Source: Actinoplanes subtropicus
GTDB taxonomy: Bacteria; Actinomycetota; Actinomycetes; Mycobacteriales; Micromonosporaceae
Assembly (NCBI RefSeq): GCF_000721705.1
Contig: NZ_JOJL01000011.1
Coordinates: 124,001-188,000, forward strand
Direction of reading: 5' to 3'
Length of the DNA stretch: 64,000 nucleotides
The notes beneath the pieces were generated by a model. The model was given only the letters and a program-made list of their open reading frames with translations, was not told the DNA's origin and ran no database searches. This document shows, in pieces, positions 38,392 to 46,587 of this stretch. How positions within the stretch are numbered: position 1 is the first letter of the stretch; each line of letters opens with the position of its first letter. Position numbers and translations under genes: made by a program.

Positions 38392-38703
38392 ATGACGGAG
38401 CTGATTCAGATCGAGTTGCCCGACGGCGACATCGTGTGGGCGAGGGTCGCGGCCGAGGGGCCGAGCGATGTGGGCATCGGGGACCGGGTGTTGCCGCTCA
38501 AGGGCCTGACCGAGACCGTACGGTCGGTGGTCTCGAATGTGCGGAAGGGTCTGGACGGCGTGCCGCCGGACGAGCTCACCGCCGAGTTCGCGGTGGAGCT
38601 GGCGCTGGCGGAGGGTGGCGTTGTCGCCGCGCTCGTCGGTCTGCAGGCCAACGCGTCGGTGAAGATCACCGCGACCTGGTCGGCGAACCCGCCACAGTCG
38701 TAA
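38392..38703 (+). CDS. Trypco1-domain (CU044_2847 family) protein
   Basis: 103 residues from ATG 38392 with GGTGAGGG upstream. The whole protein is a small alpha/beta domain (ELIQIELPDGDIVWARVAAE; GLTETVRSVVSNVRKGL; TAEFAVELALAEGGVVAALV) of the kind named trypsin-co-occurring domain 1. As the name says, it is found with trypsin-like proteases in NTP-dependent conflict systems. It is the first gene of the 38.4-44.8 kb operon, 13 bp before the protease gene. Confidence 0.8.
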   Translation: MTELIQIELPDGDIVWARVAAEGPSDVGIGDRVLPLKGLTETVRSVVSNVRKGLDGVPPDELTAEFAVELALAEGGVVAALVGLQANASVKITATWSANPPQS

Positions 38704-38716
38704 GACGGCGAGCCAC

Positions 38717-40561
38717 GTGGAGGCGTCCGACATCCCCGCACGGTTGCTGCTCGACTGCCTGGTGCGGATCACCGGCGAGAGGATGACGGGCAGCGGGTTC
38801 CTCGCGGCGCCCGGACTGGTGGTGACGTGCGCGCACGTGGTGGGCCGCCGCCGTACCGTCGCCGTCCGGCACGGCACGTCGGAGTGGGTGGGCGAGGTCC
38901 GGTACGCGTCCGCCCCGCCCGGACGCAACGAACTGTGGCCGTACCCGGACCTGGCGATCGTGGAGATACCGGCCGGCGCCGGCCCCCGAGCCTGCGCCTG
39001 GCTGGACCAACGGCTGCCGGCGATGCGATCGCATCTGCAGGTGGTGGGCTTCTCCGATGTCTATCAGCCGGAGCTGCGCCAGACCTCGGCGTCGCCGACG
39101 TTCGACGGACTGCACGATCTCGGTGGCCCGATGCTGATGCTGGGCGACCGCGAGATACCGGCGGGCATGTCGGGCGGGCCGGTGCTGAACCTGGCGACCG
39201 GCGGGGTGTGCGGTGTCGCCAAGGCCAGCCGGCTCAAGGGTGCCGCCATGGGTGGCCTGGCCGTGCCGATCTGGGCGCTGCGCGAGACCGACCCCGCGAT
39301 GTACCGGCGGTTGATCCGGGCACACGATCGCTTCTTCGCCGAGGAGCGGGAATGGTCTGCCGCCAGCGACAAGCTCGCGCCGGCGAAGTCGCACCGGCTG
39401 CACCAGGACGAGGAACGTCAGCTGCGCGGGATATTGGCCGGGCTGCCGGTGCCGCCGGATCATCAGGACCGGTTCGTTCGCGCGGTCGGCCGGGAGTGCT
39501 TCGCCCCGCAGCGGCGGCTGGTCGACAGCGCCGACGTGATCACCGAGCTGGCGGTTCAGCTTCCACCTCCGCGGGGAGAACTGCCCTACGTGCTCCGTTA
39601 CGCCGCCGATCTGGCCAGGGACCTGACCGGGAGGGACGCCCAGGCGATCCGCGACTGGGTTCTGCTCACGGCTGGACGGCTGCGGCTCGGGAAGGAGGCG
39701 ACCGCCCGGTTGGCCGACGGAGCCGAGTTCGACGGGCCGTCCTCCCTGATGGTCCGGATCCGGCCGGTGGGGTCGGACCACGCCCGGTTCGAGGTGCGGA
39801 TCTGGCGTTACTTCGACGCGTCGGCCGTGATCCCGGTGCCGCTGGAGAGCACGCCGCTCGGCATGACCGAGGCGATCCAGCTGGTGCGGGACGAACTGCC
39901 CCGGCAACTCGCGGCCATGGCACCGGACTGCGGCGACATCACGGTCGAGCTGTTCCTGCCCCCGGAACAGCTGGAGGAGGACTTCGAATCCCGGCCGCTC
40001 TGGCCGGAACAGCCCTGGTCCGCGCTGGGACGCAAGCACGCCGTCCTGGTCCGCGACCAGTCCCGCCTGGACAACGACCGGATCGCGCCGGAGTGGCAGA
40101 AGCGGTGGGCGGCGGGCGCCGGCCGCGACCTCGGGGCCGACGCCGACCAGGTGGCCTGCACCGACCGGCGCGGTCACGAGGCGGTGGAGGGCTGGCTGGC
40201 CGAGGACTATCGCCGCTGCGTCCTGGTGTTCGCCTCGTCCCCGTTCGGTTCCGGGAACCGGCCCGCGGTGGAGGTCGGTCTGCACAGCGGGGTTCCGGTG
40301 ATGATGTGGCGCCGCGGCCACTGTCCCGACTGCCCCGACGACGGCTGCCCCGGCGAGTCGTTCGTGCGCCGGCTTCGCGAGGCGCTGTCCGGCGTCGGTC
40401 TCGCCGAGCTTCCCGAACGTGTGCGCCGGCTGCGTGCCCAGGCCGCCGGCACGACGTCGGCCGACCATTGCGGGGCCGACCTGGTGCTGTTGTACGACGA
40501 CCCGTCGCGGCGGCCGCCGCGCGACCGGCTTGTCCGCCCTGAGGAGAACAATGACGACTGA
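38717..40561 (+). CDS. Trypsin-like protease fused to VMAP C-terminal region
   Basis: 614 residues from GTG 38717. Trypsin fold with H40 (VTCAHVV), D78 (YPDLAIVEI) and S152 (AGMSGGPV). A short helical linker domain (about 220-280, ERQLRGILAGLPVPP) leads to the vWA-MoxR-associated-protein (VMAP) C-terminal domain (about 285-600), with VELFLPPEQLEEDFE and a GRKHAVLVRDQSRL strand. No signal peptide, so it acts in the cytosol. The 3' end overlaps the MoxR gene by 11 bp. Likely a protease effector controlled by the ATPase; the target is unknown. Confidence 0.82.
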   Translation: MEASDIPARLLLDCLVRITGERMTGSGFLAAPGLVVTCAHVVGRRRTVAVRHGTSEWVGEVRYASAPPGRNELWPYPDLAIVEIPAGAGPRACAWLDQRLPAMRSHLQVVGFSDVYQPELRQTSASPTFDGLHDLGGPMLMLGDREIPAGMSGGPVLNLATGGVCGVAKASRLKGAAMGGLAVPIWALRETDPAMYRRLIRAHDRFFAEEREWSAASDKLAPAKSHRLHQDEERQLRGILAGLPVPPDHQDRFVRAVGRECFAPQRRLVDSADVITELAVQLPPPRGELPYVLRYAADLARDLTGRDAQAIRDWVLLTAGRLRLGKEATARLADGAEFDGPSSLMVRIRPVGSDHARFEVRIWRYFDASAVIPVPLESTPLGMTEAIQLVRDELPRQLAAMAPDCGDITVELFLPPEQLEEDFESRPLWPEQPWSALGRKHAVLVRDQSRLDNDRIAPEWQKRWAAGAGRDLGADADQVACTDRRGHEAVEGWLAEDYRRCVLVFASSPFGSGNRPAVEVGLHSGVPVMMWRRGHCPDCPDDGCPGESFVRRLREALSGVGLAELPERVRRLRAQAAGTTSADHCGADLVLLYDDPSRRPPRDRLVRPEENNDD

Positions 40562-41543
40562 CCGCTGGCGGATCTTCACCGGCACCGGCGATGTCCACGA
40601 CGGGATCGAGCGCCTGCCGGAACCCCCGCCGTGGCGCCGGTTCAACGGGGAGCCGGTGGCCGCGTTCGACCGGACCCCGACGACGCCGCACGGGCAGCGA
40701 CGCACCGCCCTGGCCACCACCTATCAGGCCGATCCCAGCACGATCGACCTGGTCAACACCGCGTTGTACCTGCGCCGGCCGCTGCTGGTCACGGGTGAGC
40801 CGGGCGTCGGGAAGTCCACCCTCGCCTACGCGGTGGCGCACGAGCTCCGGCTCGGCGCGGTGCTGCGCTGGCCCATCACCAGCCGGTCGACGCTGCGGGA
40901 CGGCCTCTACCGGTACGACGCGATCGGGCGGGTGGAGGACGCCAGCACCGGCGACGCGGCCGACGGCCACCTCGGGCGATACCTGCGACTCGGTCCGCTC
41001 GGCACCGCCCTCGTGCCCTATCCGATCCCCCGCGTACTGCTCGTCGATGAGATCGACAAGAGTGACTTCGACTTCCCCAACGACCTGCTGAACATCTTCG
41101 AGGAGGGTGAGTACGAGATTCCCGAGCTGGCCCGGGTCGCCGACACCACCCCGCAGGTCTGGTTGCAGCCCGCCGACCAGGGCCCGAAGGTTCTGGTCAA
41201 CCAGGGACTGGTGGCCTGCCGGGAGTTCCCGCTGATCATCATGACGAGCAACCAGGAACGCGAGTTCCCGGCCGCGTTCCTGCGCCGGTGCGTGCGGCTG
41301 GACCTGCCGTCCCCGGACCACGCGCGACTCGGCGCGATCGTCGCCGCGCACCTGGGCCCCGACCGGGCCCGCAGCAGCGAGGACCTCATCGCCACGTTCC
41401 TCGCCCGCCGGGAGACCGGCGAGATGGCCACCGACCAGCTGCTCAACGCCGTCTACCTGCTCGACCGGGCGGCCGGCAACGACCACGGCGCCCGACGGCA
41501 CCTGGCCGACCTCATCCTGCGCCAACTGAACTCGACCGCCTGA
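40551..41543 (+). CDS. MoxR-family AAA+ ATPase
   Basis: 330 residues. Walker A GEPGVGKSTLAYAVA (about 80), Walker B VLLVDEIDKSDFDFPNDLLN, sensor 1 IIMTSNQEREFP, arginine-finger region AFLRRCVRLDLP, and a helical lid. MoxR ATPases pair with vWA proteins as remodelling chaperones, and here they are part of a VMAP ternary set. It starts inside the protease gene and ends 2 bp before the next ATG, showing tight co-translation. Confidence 0.9.
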   Translation: MTTDRWRIFTGTGDVHDGIERLPEPPPWRRFNGEPVAAFDRTPTTPHGQRRTALATTYQADPSTIDLVNTALYLRRPLLVTGEPGVGKSTLAYAVAHELRLGAVLRWPITSRSTLRDGLYRYDAIGRVEDASTGDAADGHLGRYLRLGPLGTALVPYPIPRVLLVDEIDKSDFDFPNDLLNIFEEGEYEIPELARVADTTPQVWLQPADQGPKVLVNQGLVACREFPLIIMTSNQEREFPAAFLRRCVRLDLPSPDHARLGAIVAAHLGPDRARSSEDLIATFLARRETGEMATDQLLNAVYLLDRAAGNDHGARRHLADLILRQLNSTA

Positions 41544-41545
41544 CG

Positions 41546-44365
41546 ATGTCGATCGACCAACTGCGGCTGGTCCTCGCCGCCGCCGGCCTCGAGCTGGACC
41601 CCTATCAGCTCAGCGACGCGCTCTGGCTCGCCGGGCACCTCCCGCGGACGGAGGCGGTCACCGCACCGCGAGGGCCCGGTGGCGTGGACGTGCCGCGGGC
41701 CGGCGGTGCCCAGCAGCCACCGGCGGCGACGGAGCCCCCGTCGCCGGCGGCCGATCCGGCCGGGCCCGACGATCCGGCCGACGCCGCGGCGTTGCATGCT
41801 CTGCTCCCGAGGCGCCCCCCGGAGGTCACCGGTGTCGGCGAGGAGCCGCCCTCCGAACAGGCGGACGCCGCGCCGGCGCACACCGTGCGGGTGTCCCCGC
41901 ACCGGACGAGCCTGTCCACGCTGGAGTTGTTGCGGGCGTTGCGGCCGCTCAAACGGACGGTGGTGGCGCGCGACGCCACGGAACTGGACGAGGACGCGAC
42001 CGCCCAGTGGTACGCCGAGCACCGCCGGTGGCGCCCGGTCACCCGGCCGACCGGCGACCGGGCGCTGGATCTGGCGCTCGTGGTGGAGAAGGACCCGGCC
42101 GGGCTCTGGACCGGCCTGAGCGCCGAGCTCGCCGAGCTGTGCCGCCGGCTCGGCGCGTTCCGCACGGTGTCCGTCCACACGCTGGTGGTGGATCCCACCG
42201 GGCACAGCCAGGTCACGCCGGACCGGCGTTCCGGCGCCGTGCACAGCCCACACCAGTTGCTCGACCCGGCCCGGCGCACCGTCGTCCTGGTGGTCAGCGA
42301 CTGCGTCGCAGCGGGATGGCAGCACCCCGGCATCCATCGGGTCCTGCGCCGGTGGGCGCGCCGGGGGCCGGTGGCGATCCTGCAGCCTCTGCCCGAACGG
42401 CTCTGGTCGCGCACCTGTCTGCCACCCGTTGCGACCCACGTCACCGCGACCGGGTTCGCCCGCCCCAACGGGGAACTCACCGTGCGGCGCCGGGACTACC
42501 CGTGGCGGCGGCCGCGCCGGGAGCGCTACGCCATCCCGGTACTGGAGATCAGCCCCTCCTGGTTGAACCCGTGGGCGAGGCTGGTCGCCGGCGTCGCCGA
42601 GGGCGGCGTCGACACCGCCGTGGCGATTGTCAAGCCGGCCGGCGGCAGCCTCGCCATCGCACCGCTGCCGGCGCCGCGGACGCCGCCCCTGCAGCGCGTC
42701 CTGCGGTTCCGCGCCGAGGCGTCGCCGGAGGCCTACAAACTCGCCGGGTACCTGGCCGCCGCCCCCTTGCACCCGGCGGTCATGCACCTGGTCCACGGCA
42801 TCATGCTGCCCGCGCCGGACCCCGCTCATCTCGCCGAGGTGCTCTACGGCGGCCTGGTCACGCCGGTGCCGTTCGCCGGCCCCGAGCCGATGTACGACTT
42901 CCTTCCCGGCGTACGCGACGTCCTGCTCGGGACGCTTCGCACCGACGAGGTGGCCCAGGTCCTCGACGACGTGTCGTCCTACATCGACAGGTCCGCGACC
43001 GACGCGCCGGCCATCGCGACACCCGGCCCGGACGGACCATTGCGGATCTCGCCGCTCAGCCGGCCCTTCGCCCGGGTCCGGGCGCAGGTTCTGCAGCGGC
43101 TCGACGGCAGGACGGAAGCCCAGGCCGCCGAGGAGGTGGCGGCCACACCGGAACGCCGGCCCGGGCCGCCGGTCACCAGCCTGCAGCACCCCGGCTCCCG
43201 CGTCCTGCTGATCGGCGACAGCGCGACGTATCCGCGGCTGCTGCCGGAGACGATGATCGAGCACGCGCAGGTCCGGCCGGAGGCGATCACCCAGTTGACC
43301 GGTCTCACCACGGCACAGCTCCTCGATCGCCTGCGCCGGGCGGCCCGCGAGACCTCGGGTCTGCTCTTCGTGCACTGGAGCGCACCGGCGGCGCACCAGG
43401 GCGACGGCCGCCGGCTGATCGCGACCAGTGACGGCTCGGCCGACTGGGACGAGGTGCTCGACGAGCTGGAACGAAGCGTCACCGGCGCCGCCGTCGTCAT
43501 GCACACCGGCGACGGCCTCCGGTTGCGCCCGGGCGGCGTCGTGTCCGGCAAGGTCTATCAGCTGTCCACGCGGCCGCACCACATCGCCGACTTCGAGCAC
43601 CTCCTGATCCACGGTCTGGCCGGCGGCCCGCCGCAGCTCTCGATCGAGGACATCTACAGCGGTCTGCACGGGGCTTCGCTGATCGGCGGCCGCGTGCCGC
43701 CGTCCCGGGTCGGTTCCGGGAACCGCATCGTCATCGTCCCCAACCGGGCGGAACAGCCGCCGGAACCGCCGGAGAGCCCGTCCGAGACGGTCTCCTGCAA
43801 GGTCACGATCTTGGGCGGATTCGGTGTGGGCAAGACCACGTCGATCGGCGCGATCTCCGAGATCACGCCGCTCACCACCGAGGCCGTCATGACCAACGCC
43901 TCCTACGGCATGGAAGACAATCGTCATGTGCCGGCCAAGGTGACCACTACGGTCGCGATGGATTTCGGCCGGTTGACCCTGGACCGCGACATCGTCGTCT
44001 ACCTTTTCGGCCTGCCCGGCTCGACCCGCTTCTGGTTCAGCTGGGACGAGATCATTCGCGGATGCCTGGGTGCGGTGGTTCTCGTCGACACCCGGCGACT
44101 GGCCGACTCCTTCCCCTTCATCGACTACGTGGAGCAGCGAAACCTGCCCTTCGCGATCGCCGTCAACTGCTTCGACGGCCGGCAGCTCCACACGCTCGAG
44201 GATGTCCGTGAGGCGCTGGCCATCACCCCGGAGGTCCCGGTGGTCGCCTTCGACGCCCGCGACCGGTCCGCGGTGCGGCGCGTGCTGATCACGCTGCTCC
44301 AGCACGTCCTGCGCCCGGTGCCGGTATCCGGCGATGTCACAGATCGGGGGCCTGTCCGGTCTTGA
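41546..44365 (+). CDS. SAV_2336-type vWA-like/pseudo-caspase/CvnD-like GTPase fusion
   Basis: 939 residues. (1) About 1-500: SAV_2336 N-terminal region; from residue 172 (ALDLALVVEKDPAGLW ... VVLVVSDCVAAGW ... VAILQPLPERLW) it reads like a vWA/Rossmann fold without the DxSxS metal site. (2) About 545-715: a caspase/CHAT-like layout (VLLIGDSATYPRLLPE, LLFVHWSAPA, VVMHTGDG, LSIEDIYSGLHG) lacking catalytic His and Cys. (3) About 750-935: MglA/CvnD GTPase with G1 GGFGVGKTTS, G3 FGLPGSTRF (Gln replaced by Ser) and G4 NCFD. Family calls for 1 and 3 are good; 2 is inference. It is probably the regulatory partner of the protease and ATPase. Confidence 0.75.
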   Translation: MSIDQLRLVLAAAGLELDPYQLSDALWLAGHLPRTEAVTAPRGPGGVDVPRAGGAQQPPAATEPPSPAADPAGPDDPADAAALHALLPRRPPEVTGVGEEPPSEQADAAPAHTVRVSPHRTSLSTLELLRALRPLKRTVVARDATELDEDATAQWYAEHRRWRPVTRPTGDRALDLALVVEKDPAGLWTGLSAELAELCRRLGAFRTVSVHTLVVDPTGHSQVTPDRRSGAVHSPHQLLDPARRTVVLVVSDCVAAGWQHPGIHRVLRRWARRGPVAILQPLPERLWSRTCLPPVATHVTATGFARPNGELTVRRRDYPWRRPRRERYAIPVLEISPSWLNPWARLVAGVAEGGVDTAVAIVKPAGGSLAIAPLPAPRTPPLQRVLRFRAEASPEAYKLAGYLAAAPLHPAVMHLVHGIMLPAPDPAHLAEVLYGGLVTPVPFAGPEPMYDFLPGVRDVLLGTLRTDEVAQVLDDVSSYIDRSATDAPAIATPGPDGPLRISPLSRPFARVRAQVLQRLDGRTEAQAAEEVAATPERRPGPPVTSLQHPGSRVLLIGDSATYPRLLPETMIEHAQVRPEAITQLTGLTTAQLLDRLRRAARETSGLLFVHWSAPAAHQGDGRRLIATSDGSADWDEVLDELERSVTGAAVVMHTGDGLRLRPGGVVSGKVYQLSTRPHHIADFEHLLIHGLAGGPPQLSIEDIYSGLHGASLIGGRVPPSRVGSGNRIVIVPNRAEQPPEPPESPSETVSCKVTILGGFGVGKTTSIGAISEITPLTTEAVMTNASYGMEDNRHVPAKVTTTVAMDFGRLTLDRDIVVYLFGLPGSTRFWFSWDEIIRGCLGAVVLVDTRRLADSFPFIDYVEQRNLPFAIAVNCFDGRQLHTLEDVREALAITPEVPVVAFDARDRSAVRRVLITLLQHVLRPVPVSGDVTDRGPVRS

Positions 44366-44400
44366 CGGGCGACGCAGCCCGTACCGAATGGAGACCGATC

Positions 44401-44808
44401 ATGAGTGACGTCCGCAAGCTCGCCACCCTGCTGGACGACCCCGAGGTGCGTGACCTGGTGCGCGGGCTGGCCGGCAACCGGCCGGCCCGGCTGCGGGCGA
44501 TCGTGCTGGAGCTGGCCGTGACCACGACTCCCGAGCAGTACCGCAGCTGGCTCGACGACGGCGAGCGGAACCACGCGATGACCACCGGCCAGGTGCGGGC
44601 GGCGGTCGGCGAGGAGCTGCTCGGCGACCTGGCCGACGCCGGCGGCAGCACGCCGGGCGCGGTCGCCTGGCAGCTCGCCGGGATCCTGCCCGACCTGGTC
44701 GACGCGGTCACCCCGGGCGGCCGGGTGCTGGAGGCCGACGTGCTGGCCCGGGAGCTCGGCCAGGTGACCGCCGAGGACGACCTCGAGGCGGGCGTCTTCG
44801 GCGAGTGA
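44401..44808 (+). CDS. YidB/DUF937-like protein
   Basis: 135 residues from ATG 44401. The core YRSWLDDGERNHAMTTGQVR, EELLGDLADAGGSTP and LPDLVDAVTPGGRVLE reproduces the YidB pattern (SWIGTGEN..., PxxVDxLTPxGxxP). YidB proteins are small cytoplasmic proteins of unknown action. It is 35 bp after the GTPase fusion, so probably in the same operon, and is immediately followed by the IS110 element. Confidence 0.7.
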   Translation: MSDVRKLATLLDDPEVRDLVRGLAGNRPARLRAIVLELAVTTTPEQYRSWLDDGERNHAMTTGQVRAAVGEELLGDLADAGGSTPGAVAWQLAGILPDLVDAVTPGGRVLEADVLARELGQVTAEDDLEAGVFGE

Positions 44809-45132: not shown

Positions 45133-46587
45133 GTGCAGCGCAGGCTGGTAGGGATTGATCTGGGGATCGCGTCGGCGCACACGGTCCGGGTGCGTGATGA
45201 GGCCGGGCGGGAGGTGTGCCGGCGCCGGTGCGAGCCGACGGTGGAGAGTCTGAGCGTGGTCGAGCAGGCGGCGTTGGCTGGTGCGCAGGCGGGGACGCGG
45301 TTGGAGGTGGTGATCGAGCCGACCGGGCCGGCGTGGTTGCCGATCGCGGTGTTTTTCACCGCGCGGGGGCATCTGGTGTTCCGGGTCTCGAGTGCGAAGG
45401 CGGCGGATCTGCGCCGGTTTTTGTCCCGGCATGCGAAGTCCAACGGGATCGACGCGGACACCCTGGCGAGGTTGCCGTTGATCGATCCGGACGGGCTACG
45501 GCCGCTGGAGCTGCCGGACGCGGCCGCGGCGGCGCTGGACCGGCGGGTCCGGGCGTGTGACCGGCTGACCATGGCCGCGTCCGAGCACAAGGTGCGGATC
45601 AAGGACTTGGTCCGGCAGGTGCTGCCGTGCACCCCGCTGACCGGGGATCTGGGCAAGGCCGATCTGGCGGTGCTGGAACGCTACGCCGACCCGCGGGCGC
45701 TGCTGCGGCTCGGCCGGGCCCGGCTGACCACGCTGATCGGCAAGGCGTCCAACAACCACCAAGGCGCGGCGCGGGCCGAGCAGTGGCTGGCCGCCGCCCG
45801 GGCTGCGGTCGAGCTTTACGGCGAGCATCCAGCGGTCGCGTTCGCCGACCTGGCCGCGGAGATCGCGACCGAGGTGCGGCTGCTACGCGCTATCGACACC
45901 GAGCTGGCCGCGCACGCGGCCGAGCGGGAGTCCTGCTACCGGTGGGTCGACCCGCTGCAACTGGCCCGTAGCCTGCCCGGCCTGGCCGAGGTCGGCGGGC
46001 CGGCGATGACCGCGGTGATCGGTGACGCCGCCCGGTTCCCGAGCGCGGCGCACTTCAAGTCCTACCTCGGGCTCGCACCCCGGGCGTCGGAGACCGGGGA
46101 CACCGACCGCAAGGGCCAGCCGATGTCCAAGGCCGGTCCCCGGCTCGCCCGAGCCACCCTGGTCCGGGCCGCGGACTGGGCCCGCAAACAAGACCCCCAG
46201 CTCGCCCGGATCTACCACCAGCAGATGGCCGAACGCGGCGCGCAACACCTCAAGGCCAGCTGCGTGGTCGCCGCCCGGCTCGCCGAACGGCTCTGGACCG
46301 TGATGCGCCGCCGCATGCCGTATGTCATCTGCGACATCGACGGCACCCCGGTCACACCCGAGCAGGCGAAACAACTCATCGCGCAGCAGTGGACCGTGAC
46401 CGAGGACATCCGGCGCAGGCGACGCAGCAGTAAACACAGGGCGGGGAAGGCCCCTCAGCAAGCCCTCACGGGACATGACAAAGACGCTCGAAGCGTAACG
46501 AGGCGACCTTCCCCACGCCGATCCTCCGCGACGCCGCCGCGCAACGTCAAGCAACCAGCCCCTTGACAACCGATCCCCGATAGGGAA
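44821..46587 (+). mobile_element. IS110-family insertion sequence (ends approximate)
   Basis: The transposase gene plus its 5' and 3' flanks form a unit inserted between the YidB-like gene and the convergent esterase. IS110 elements lack long terminal inverted repeats, so exact ends cannot be read; the limits given are the neighbouring genes. A small imperfect hairpin (GATCCCC/GGGAATC, 46571-46588) lies at the right side. Confidence 0.55.
45133..46566 (+). CDS. IS110-family transposase (DEDD)
   Basis: 477 residues from GTG 45133. The N-terminal RuvC-like DEDD domain starts RLVGIDLGIASAHTVRV, with the Glu in VVIEPTGPAW and the Asp in SNGIDADTLARLPLI. The C-terminal IS116/IS110/IS902 domain has LPGLAEVGGPAMTAVIGDAA, FPSAAHFKSYLGLAPR and GPRLARATLVRAADWARK. 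The conserved serine of this second domain would be in KGQPMSKAGP. The length exceeds the common 400-420 because of a basic C-terminal tail. It appears intact. Confidence 0.93.
   Translation: MQRRLVGIDLGIASAHTVRVRDEAGREVCRRRCEPTVESLSVVEQAALAGAQAGTRLEVVIEPTGPAWLPIAVFFTARGHLVFRVSSAKAADLRRFLSRHAKSNGIDADTLARLPLIDPDGLRPLELPDAAAAALDRRVRACDRLTMAASEHKVRIKDLVRQVLPCTPLTGDLGKADLAVLERYADPRALLRLGRARLTTLIGKASNNHQGAARAEQWLAAARAAVELYGEHPAVAFADLAAEIATEVRLLRAIDTELAAHAAERESCYRWVDPLQLARSLPGLAEVGGPAMTAVIGDAARFPSAAHFKSYLGLAPRASETGDTDRKGQPMSKAGPRLARATLVRAADWARKQDPQLARIYHQQMAERGAQHLKASCVVAARLAERLWTVMRRRMPYVICDIDGTPVTPEQAKQLIAQQWTVTEDIRRRRRSSKHRAGKAPQQALTGHDKDARSVTRRPSPRRSSATPPRNVKQPAP

What the first reader, a model, noticed from the sequence alone, without database searches (positions are those of the whole stretch)
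38392..44808. VMAP-type conflict operon with a fused GTPase
Five tightly packed genes (gaps 13, -11, 2 and 35 bp) encode Trypco1, trypsin-VMAP, MoxR AAA+ and a 939-residue protein that joins a SAV_2336/vWA-like region to a CvnD/MglA-like GTPase, then a YidB-like protein. VMAP, MoxR and vWA triads with trypsin effectors are known as NTP-dependent conflict systems. The fused small GTPase in the vWA-like subunit, linking it to the conservon (CvnABCD) world, is the unusual part and may define a subtype in which two NTPases gate one protease.
Basis: partly seen in the sequence, partly recalled or inferred. Interest (0 to 1): 0.82.

Follow-up and report, generated by a model that had tools for sequence, protein, structure and literature searches.

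The report
Conflict operon carrying crippled Ras-like GTPase
A soil bacterium's predicted immune operon (a protease, a molecular motor and a scaffold) carries on its scaffold a copy of the cell's own Ras-like signalling switch whose 'off' chemistry appears lost, which suggests that such systems borrow and disable host signalling proteins as bait or weapons.

Summary
Five packed genes (gaps 13, -11, 2, 35) encode Trypco1, trypsin-VMAP, MoxR, a 939-aa vWA-type protein and a YidB-like protein. This is a VMAP ternary conflict system (Kaur 2020), not a new class.

A degenerate caspase-like domain lies between scaffold and GTPase. The GTPase is conservon (CvnD) type, but its catalytic Gln is Ser826.

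The fusion recurs: 15 SAV_2336 proteins, window included, carry a CvnD-like domain, in two scaffold clades. The three with known neighbourhoods keep Trypco1, trypsin-VMAP and MoxR. Seven of 15 also carry CvnC (DUF742), whose mycobacterial homologue is reported as a likely exchange factor.

In 15 of 15 the G3 Gln (13) or the P-loop (the other two) is lost, against 0 of 67 free-standing CvnD controls. So 'two NTPases gate one protease' is not supported.

Best reading: a protease/AAA+-gated scaffold presents or releases a hydrolysis-dead mimic of the host's conservon G protein, mostly with intact P-loop, acting dominantly or as bait. Deployment is untested. The YidB-like gene was not found in 100 related loci. 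New variant of a known kind.

The parts
38392..38703 (+). Trypco1 (trypsin-co-occurring domain 1) gene, 103 aa
   Evidence: Pfam PF19493 E 2.8e-11; NCBIfam CU044_2847; homologues in L060 (66% id) and L019 (37%)
38717..40561 (+). VMAP gene, 614 aa: trypsin-like protease + VMAP-M0 + VMAP-C
   Evidence: triad-like motifs CAHV at 38, YPDLAIV at 76, GMSGGPV at 150 (assignment as catalytic triad is recalled knowledge)
38789..39217 (+). trypsin-like domain (residues 25-167), motifs intact
   Evidence: Trypsin_2 E 1.3e-11
39785..40504 (+). VMAP-C domain (residues 357-596)
   Evidence: PF20028 E 9.8e-43
40551..41543 (+). MoxR AAA+ ATPase, 330 aa, with the VMAP-system N-terminal motifs WRIFTG and PPWRRF, Walker A GEPGVGKS, Walker B LLVDEID
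   Evidence: AAA_5 E 9.3e-9; motif positions; N-terminal motif definition from PMC7159879; Walker names recalled
41546..44365 (+). vWA component, 939 aa: SAV_2336 + caspase-like + CvnD-like GTPase domain without the G3 Gln
41600..42997 (+). SAV_2336_NTERM / vWA scaffold (residues 19-484)
   Evidence: NF041121 400 bits; MIDAS-position Asp is Glu in the window (81 of 84 aligned have Asp)
43178..43750 (+). degenerate caspase-like domain (about residues 545-735); His and Cys motifs of two relatives absent (FVHWSAPA, AVVMHTGDG)
   Evidence: profile comparison with relatives that match NF047832: prob 97.7, E 1.4e-12; those matches are below the model's cut-off; the window itself has no NF047832 match
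43778..44320 (+). CvnD-like Ras-superfamily GTPase domain (residues 745-925): P-loop GGFGVGKT at 757, NCFD at 874, DAR at 903 kept; G3 GLPGS lacks the Gln
44021..44023 (+). codon of Ser826 at the position of the catalytic G3 Gln
   Evidence: alignment with 59 free-standing CvnD-like domains, 59 Gln
44401..44808 (+). YidB-like gene, 135 aa (alternative TTG start at 44362); perhaps co-transcribed, not a conserved part
   Evidence: PF20159 E 8.7e-8; no hit in 100 related loci

Best explanation
The operon is a VMAP ternary conflict system. Its vWA scaffold carries as cargo a captured, hydrolysis-deficient copy of the host's conservon G protein (CvnD), behind a dead caspase-like domain. SHOWN by sequence: gene order, domains, intact protease and AAA+ motifs, loss of the G3 Gln with the P-loop and guanine motifs kept in the window, at least two captures of a CvnD domain by such scaffolds, and loss of the Gln or P-loop in 15 of 15 of them. 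INFERRED: the complex idles in an off state; an invader cue is sensed through VMAP or the cargo; MoxR remodels the vWA scaffold; the VMAP trypsin cuts the linkers or is itself unleashed. The CvnD-like module then acts by binding, not catalysis: with Gln lost and P-loop intact it would stay GTP-bound and engage or titrate conservon partners, forcing or blocking that signalling state and so arresting or reprogramming the infected hyphal compartment.
For: VMAP-system features: with definitions read. Cargo is conservon-like: its nearest free-standing kin is a CvnD gene of the same genome (59% id to L117), which lies in a complete NIT-kinase / Robl_LC7 / DUF742 / GTPase operon. Hydrolysis deficiency: 0 of 15 scaffold-fused domains keep both the P-loop and the G3 Gln, against 59 of 59 plus 8 of 8 free-standing ones. 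Among 58 columns conserved in the 59, the most-lost is that Gln (13 of 15), then a Thr of the TTT motif (12 of 15, kept in the window), while 40-55 of the 58 are kept: this looks like targeted loss rather than general decay. Seven of the 15 also carry DUF742/CvnC (precomputed Pfam; for P0013), whose homologue MfpC is reported as a likely GEF (PMC13343842 introduction). Repeated capture: one origin of all 15 domains rejected, AU p 1.2e-6; two scaffold clades. The second VMAP system of the genome carries unrelated cargo (NB-ARC/TPR).
Against: No experiment links this or any VMAP system to phage defence here. Three of 15 domains have broken P-loops (P0006, P0007, P0021), so 'GTP-locked' cannot hold for all. 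In 8 of 15 the G4 Asp is His, though some free-standing CvnD vary there too (L141, L154 His). Two of five CvnD-like domains fused to other proteins (P0008, P0019) also lost the Gln, so the loss is not special to these scaffolds. Neighbourhoods are known for only 3 of 15. Members within a clade are related, and at least 11 of the 59 controls are one ortholog group, so the counts are not independent events. The effect of Gln loss in MglA-type proteins is inferred from Ras. Cleavage of the scaffold by the trypsin is a prediction.
Confidence: 0.55

Rival explanations
1. Sensor/bait model: the CvnD-like domain is an integrated decoy. Invader proteins that manipulate conservon G proteins hit it, and the vWA-MoxR pair then switches on the VMAP trypsin, which is the real effector.
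For: The reverse polarity is proposed for VMAP systems by PMC10907252 (passages). Inactive cargo and decoys are discussed by PMC7159879 (section 35 part 1). Broken P-loops in 3 of 15, and high similarity to living CvnD (P0006 70%, P0021 69%), fit bait. A STAND protein (P0008) also carries a dead CvnD-like domain.
Against: 12 of 15 keep the P-loop, 15 of 15 keep N and F of NxFD and 14 of 15 keep DAR, which pure bait may not need. CvnC in cis in 7 proteins points to nucleotide exchange. No invader protein acting on conservons is known to me; 'conservon' with 'phage' returned 4 papers, of which I read the abstract and introduction of one (PMC13343842) and saw three in the listing only, and none of that speaks of it.
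Confidence: 0.25
2. Active switch model: the fused GTPase cycles GTP/GDP and, with MoxR, gates the protease.
For: P-loop, NCFD and DAR are intact in the window.
Against: G3 Gln replaced by Ser; 13 of 15 fused domains lack the Gln and the other two have altered P-loops. None of the five operon proteins matches the roadblock (GAP) family.
Confidence: 0.07
3. Neutral leftovers: the caspase-like and GTPase domains are decaying passengers in a highly variable C-terminal region and have no role.
For: The C-terminal cargo of these proteins turns over fast (PMC7159879 section 9); the caspase-like domain lacks the His/Cys motifs in 4 of 6 aligned proteins.
Against: Frames are open, 50 of 58 conserved CvnD columns are kept in the window and 40-55 across the 15, and the two most-lost columns are the G3 Gln and a Thr of the TTT motif. 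The cargo type persists within two scaffold clades.
Confidence: 0.1

Closest known systems
VMAP-type MoxR-vWA ternary conflict system (Kaur et al. 2020, PMC7159879)
   Same: Trypco1, trypsin-VMAP-M0-VMAP-C, MoxR with the special N-terminal motifs, vWA-type protein with variable C-terminal domains, order VMAP-MoxR-vWA, a paralogous system with other cargo in the same genome
   Different: Conservon-type (MglA group 2) GTPase cargo is not named in the parts of the text that I read or searched; a caspase-like vWA domain sits with a trypsin VMAP, where the paper nearly always finds a caspase VMAP. The list of 86 effector domains in the supplement was not seen.
Conservon / actinobacterial G protein system (CvnABCD)
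   Same: GTPase domain 59% identical to a CvnD of the same genome, with P-loop, NxFD and DAR; in seven other SAV_2336 proteins DUF742 (CvnC) is fused too
   Different: no histidine kinase or roadblock gene among the five operon genes, catalytic Gln lost, domain tethered to a vWA-type scaffold
AP-GTPase (Roc-COR) cargo of cyanobacterial/verrucomicrobial VMAP systems
   Same: a GTPase in the cargo position of a vWA component (described in PMC7159879)
   Different: the window domain matches ATP_bind_1, no Roc or COR match at E up to 1; actinobacterial; conservon-like
EACC1-associated caspase systems (PMC7159879 System 4)
   Same: the middle domain of four relatives matches NF047832
   Different: below that model's cut-off in all four; no match and no His/Cys motif in the window; no EACC1 match among the five operon proteins

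Membership tests
VMAP ternary system | VMAP-C domain in the third component | tested here: met
   PF20028 E 9.8e-43
VMAP ternary system | gene order VMAP - MoxR - vWA | tested here: met
   window coordinates; same in L060 and L019
VMAP ternary system | MoxR N-terminal motifs WxhapG and PsWRxa | tested here: met
   WRIFTG at 6, PPWRRF at 26 (definition)
VMAP ternary system | vWA domain in the third gene | tested here: inconclusive
   SAV_2336_NTERM strong, Pfam VWA_CoxE only E 0.034, below cut-off; a MoxR-like gene lies in 100 of 100 SAV_2336 loci
VMAP ternary system | Trypco1 or 2 beside trypsin VMAPs | tested here: met
   PF19493
VMAP ternary system | acts against invaders | not testable with these tools
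   no experiment
Conservon (CvnABCD) | four-gene operon kinase-roadblock-DUF742-GTPase | tested here: not met
   only the GTPase domain is present among the five genes; control operon L117 has all four
MglA group 2 GTPase (CvnD) | P-loop, NxFD (G4), DAR (G5) | tested here: met
   GGFGVGKT, NCFD, DAR; definition PMC4316618 passages
MglA group 2 GTPase (CvnD) | G3 GTPGQ with catalytic Gln | tested here: not met
   GLPGS in the window; Gln in 67 of 67 free-standing controls
Caspase (Peptidase_C14 / EACC1-type) | His-Cys dyad | tested here: not met
   FVHWSAPA and AVVMHTGDG in place of the GHG and DC-type motifs kept in P0006 and P0021 (role of the motifs recalled)
AP-GTPase (Roc-COR) | Roc domain with C-terminal COR | tested here: not met
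   no such Pfam match at E up to 1

The most novel reading that the evidence does not exclude
Bacterial immune scaffolds have repeatedly captured the host's own Ras-like conservon switch and made it hydrolysis-dead, in one lineage with its exchange factor (CvnC) in cis. Upon infection the protease/AAA+ machine would release a constitutively GTP-loaded, oncogene-like G protein that seizes the conservon network and drives the compartment into arrest or death: a bacterial analogue of killing by a locked-on Ras.
Probability: 0.3. Interest if true: 0.82.

Novelty: new variant of a known kind. Interest (0 to 1): 0.62.

Why it matters
It ties two poorly understood actinobacterial systems together: VMAP conflict operons, whose cargo logic is unproven, and conservons, whose outputs are largely unknown. 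The cargo is a specific, testable protein with a well-understood class of change (loss of the Ras-type Gln), so the two rival polarities for VMAP systems (cargo as effector, cargo as bait) become directly testable with one GTPase and its reported GAP and GEF partners.

Tried and rejected
Rejected: an active GTPase switch (motif loss). Rejected: YidB-like gene as core (no hit in 100 related loci; L060's vWA gene is followed by a DUF4132 gene). Rejected: AP-GTPase identity. Not settled: repeated replacement of the GTPase inside scaffold clade A. The AU test gives p 0.024 for all seven and 0.003 for the six with caspase-like domains, but smaller sets are not rejected (P0001+P0020 0.25, P0021+P0006 0.37, a five-member subset 0.36). 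The independent-pairs test on well-supported branches found only 2 pairs, both in the expected direction, too few for significance. The link of the fusion to trypsin+Trypco1 (3 of 3 against 14 of 98, Fisher p 0.004) rests on related rows and single-sequence detection.

Led nowhere: PDB sequence searches gave nothing useful; one named genome-contig scan gave one locus (L018, Solihabitans fulvus, no GTPase); viral contigs none; plasmids no match covering 80% of the query. PADLOC gave AAA- and protease-domain matches only, best E 3.6e-9 to an RT-protease model.

Dropped rows: P0018 (13% coverage) from the motif table; P0012 from the scaffold tree (its scaffold match is partial, 75 bits, below cut-off); of the rows, G116:C441 (contig edge) and the rows ranking below the 98 or so best (mostly partial profile matches) were not fetched, and further matches were not listed there.
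Full report
WHAT IS THERE. Pfam and NCBIfam confirm Trypco1, Trypsin_2 + VMAP-M0 + VMAP-C, AAA_5, SAV_2336_NTERM (400 bits) with a C-terminal ATP_bind_1 domain, and a YidB-like protein. ATP_bind_1 is also what the CvnD of L117 hits. No sigma-70-like promoter was found, and the one terminator-like site lies inside the vWA gene, at chance level. The window is part of an unnamed 11.3-Mb genome. Its family is probably Micromonosporaceae, because genome G150, listed as same family, has a contig of exactly the length of the Phytohabitans houttuyneae contig of P0008 (an inference).

A MISSED DOMAIN. Between scaffold and GTPase lies a region of about 190 residues. The window itself has no caspase match, but its relatives P0006, P0021, P0010 and P0007 match the NCBIfam model 'caspase, EACC1-associated type' (83, 73, 41 and 21 bits, all below the cut-off of 140), and 2 of 6 aligned proteins match Pfam Peptidase_C14 weakly (best E 0.005). 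Profile comparison of the window and P0020 region with those four gives probability 97.7 and E 1.4e-12; with P0006 and P0021 alone 89.0 and 2.3e-6. In P0006 and P0021 GHG and DC-type motifs remain; in the window, P0020, P0007 and P0010 they do not (that these are the catalytic His and Cys is recalled knowledge). So this domain looks inactive in 4 of 6.

SYSTEM IDENTITY. The operon meets the features of the VMAP ternary system of Kaur et al. 2020 that I could test: VMAP-C, order VMAP-MoxR-vWA, MoxR N-terminal motifs, trypsin with Trypco1 (definitions from sections 9, 10 and 19 and passages). The vWA fold itself is only weakly supported by Pfam. The genome has a second VMAP system with different cargo: phosphorylase-type VMAP, and NB-ARC and TPR on the vWA protein, as that paper describes for paralogous systems.

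CENSUS. In 350 genomes of the family, drawn from a larger group, 124 have a SAV_2336 match, 97 over the cut-off; only 4 candidates per genome were scored. I fetched 97 of the best-scoring loci plus G004:C19, the second own-genome locus and one Solihabitans locus: 100 loci. A MoxR-like gene was found in 100 of 100, VMAP-C in 59, trypsin in 25, Trypco1 in 17, both of the last two in 16, YidB-like in 0, by single-sequence phmmer, so these are lower bounds. The GTPase fusion is in 2 of 100 (L019, L060) plus the window, each with Trypco1, trypsin-VMAP and MoxR in the same order. The window and L060 share 81% (MoxR), 55% (scaffold), 32% (caspase-like) and 55% (GTPase) identity.

MORE FUSIONS. Three protein searches (in 26 only the 7992 best candidates were scored) gave 18 distinct long proteins with a CvnD-like match; 12 of 18 carry SAV_2336 (partial in P0012). 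With the window, P0020 (L060) and P0021 (L019) that makes 15. Architectures: SAV-caspase-like-GTPase (window, P0020, P0021, P0006, P0007, P0010); SAV-GTPase (P0022, P0024); SAV-DUF742-GTPase (P0012-P0015, P0017, P0025), and P0011 with a cytidylate-kinase-like insert as well. DUF742 is CvnC; its mycobacterial homologue MfpC is reported as a likely exchange factor and MfpD (CvnB) as a GAP (PMC13343842, abstract and introduction). The six others: STAND (P0008), TPP-enzyme (P0009), TPR (P0016), LRR (P0019), DUF2169 (P0023), and P0018 (13% coverage, set aside).

THE GTPASE IS CRIPPLED. Group 2 MglA proteins (CvnD) have a P-loop, GTPGQ, NxFD and DAR (PMC4316618, passages). The 59 CvnD-like domains from 59 loci outside SAV_2336 genes all have an intact P-loop and the G3 Gln (at least 11 of them are one ortholog group), and so do 8 of 8 from named plasmid records of Nonomuraea, Nocardia, Streptomyces, Embleya and Euzebya. 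Of the 15 SAV-fused domains none has both. Thirteen lack the Gln: Ser826 in the window, Thr in P0020 and P0010, Ala in P0022, Glu in P0021, Pro in P0012, Val in the other seven. P0006 (GKD) and P0007 (GVT) keep the Gln but have an altered P-loop; P0021 lost both. The G4 Asp is kept in 7 of 15 and is His in 8, a change also seen in some free-standing CvnD (L141, L154). Of five non-SAV fusions three are intact (P0009, P0016, P0023) and two lost the Gln (P0008, P0019; P0008 also the P-loop Lys), so fusion alone does not force the loss, and the loss is not confined to these scaffolds. Among the 58 columns that are at least 95% constant in the 59, the Gln is the most often lost (13 of 15), then a Thr of the TTT motif (12 of 15; kept in the window); the window keeps 50 of 58 and the 15 keep 40-55. 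Eight of the 15 share their changes by descent, so this is a pattern, not a test.

ORIGINS. In a tree of the GTPase domains (G1 and central G3 columns removed) the SAV label needs 7 changes, at least 3 forced by well-supported branches, though many branches are weak. One clade for all 15 is rejected (AU p 1.2e-6); one clade for the seven of scaffold clade A is weakly rejected (p 0.024), smaller sets are not. In the scaffold tree (quick method) GTPase-bearing proteins fall into two clades, A (window, P0020, P0021, P0006, P0007, P0010, P0022; SH-aLRT 96) and B (P0011, P0013-P0015, P0017, P0024, P0025; 100), with none of the 98 other loci inside. Nearly all of those 98 are from one family, so clade B might be broken up by a wider sample. 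So at least two captures. The own genome keeps the likely model intact: L117 is a full conservon, and its CvnD is the nearest free-standing relative of the window domain (59%); P0021 and P0006 reach 69-70% to CvnD genes of the same group.

MECHANISM. Protease and AAA+ ATPase keep their motifs, while both cargo domains look catalytically dead: the pattern that Kaur et al. describe for effector-position domains (sections 10 and 35 part 1). Which way the signal runs is open. They propose that VMAP senses and its protease frees the cargo; PMC10907252 (passages) proposes the reverse. I favour a binding-type effector because 12 of 15 domains keep the P-loop and 7 carry the exchange-factor-type domain in cis, which fits a GTP-locked G protein better than inert bait. 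The bait model stays alive, above all for the three with broken P-loops. No step of deployment has been shown.

LITERATURE. Searches for VMAP/MoxR/vWA, SAV_2336/Trypco1/EACC1, conservon/CvnD, DUF742 with vWA, GTPase or MoxR, MoxR-vWA, decoy with conservon, family names, and conservon with phage (the lists of 36, 83 and 109 were capped at 15 of 1,442, 10 of 439 and 8 of 31 papers) showed no title or abstract start on CvnD-type cargo in VMAP systems. In PMC7159879 the words conservon, MglA, roadblock, Arf and YidB do not occur in the main text; its supplement was not seen. Of PMC8195603 and PMC10907252 I saw passages. Subscription papers are mostly not in this library.

Noticed in passing
window 45133-46566 (+): IS110-type transposase gene 324 bp downstream of the operon (Pfam DEDD_Tnp_IS110 and Transposase_20)
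   Followed up: no
L005 (G000:C2:10000-29000): Second VMAP system of the genome: phosphorylase-type VMAP, MoxR, and a 1428-aa vWA protein with NB-ARC and TPR
   Followed up: partly
window 42068-42109, scaffold MIDAS region: The Asp that 81 of 84 aligned SAV_2336 scaffolds have is Glu in the window (EKDPAG), so the vWA metal site may be degenerate too
   Followed up: partly
P0008 (Phytohabitans houttuyneae, 1114 aa): STAND-type protein whose C-terminus is a CvnD-like domain with P-loop Lys and G3 Gln both lost: a second immune-type scaffold with crippled conservon cargo
   Followed up: no
P0011 (1096 aa): A cytidylate-kinase-like domain (residues 540-700) follows SAV_2336 in a protein that also has DUF742 and the GTPase
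   Followed up: no
L060 241-3897 (-): The GTPase-bearing vWA gene of G163 is followed directly by a DUF4132 gene
   Followed up: no
L074 1105-1770 (+): A separate CvnD-like gene lies about 4 kb upstream of a SAV_2336 gene on the same strand
   Followed up: no
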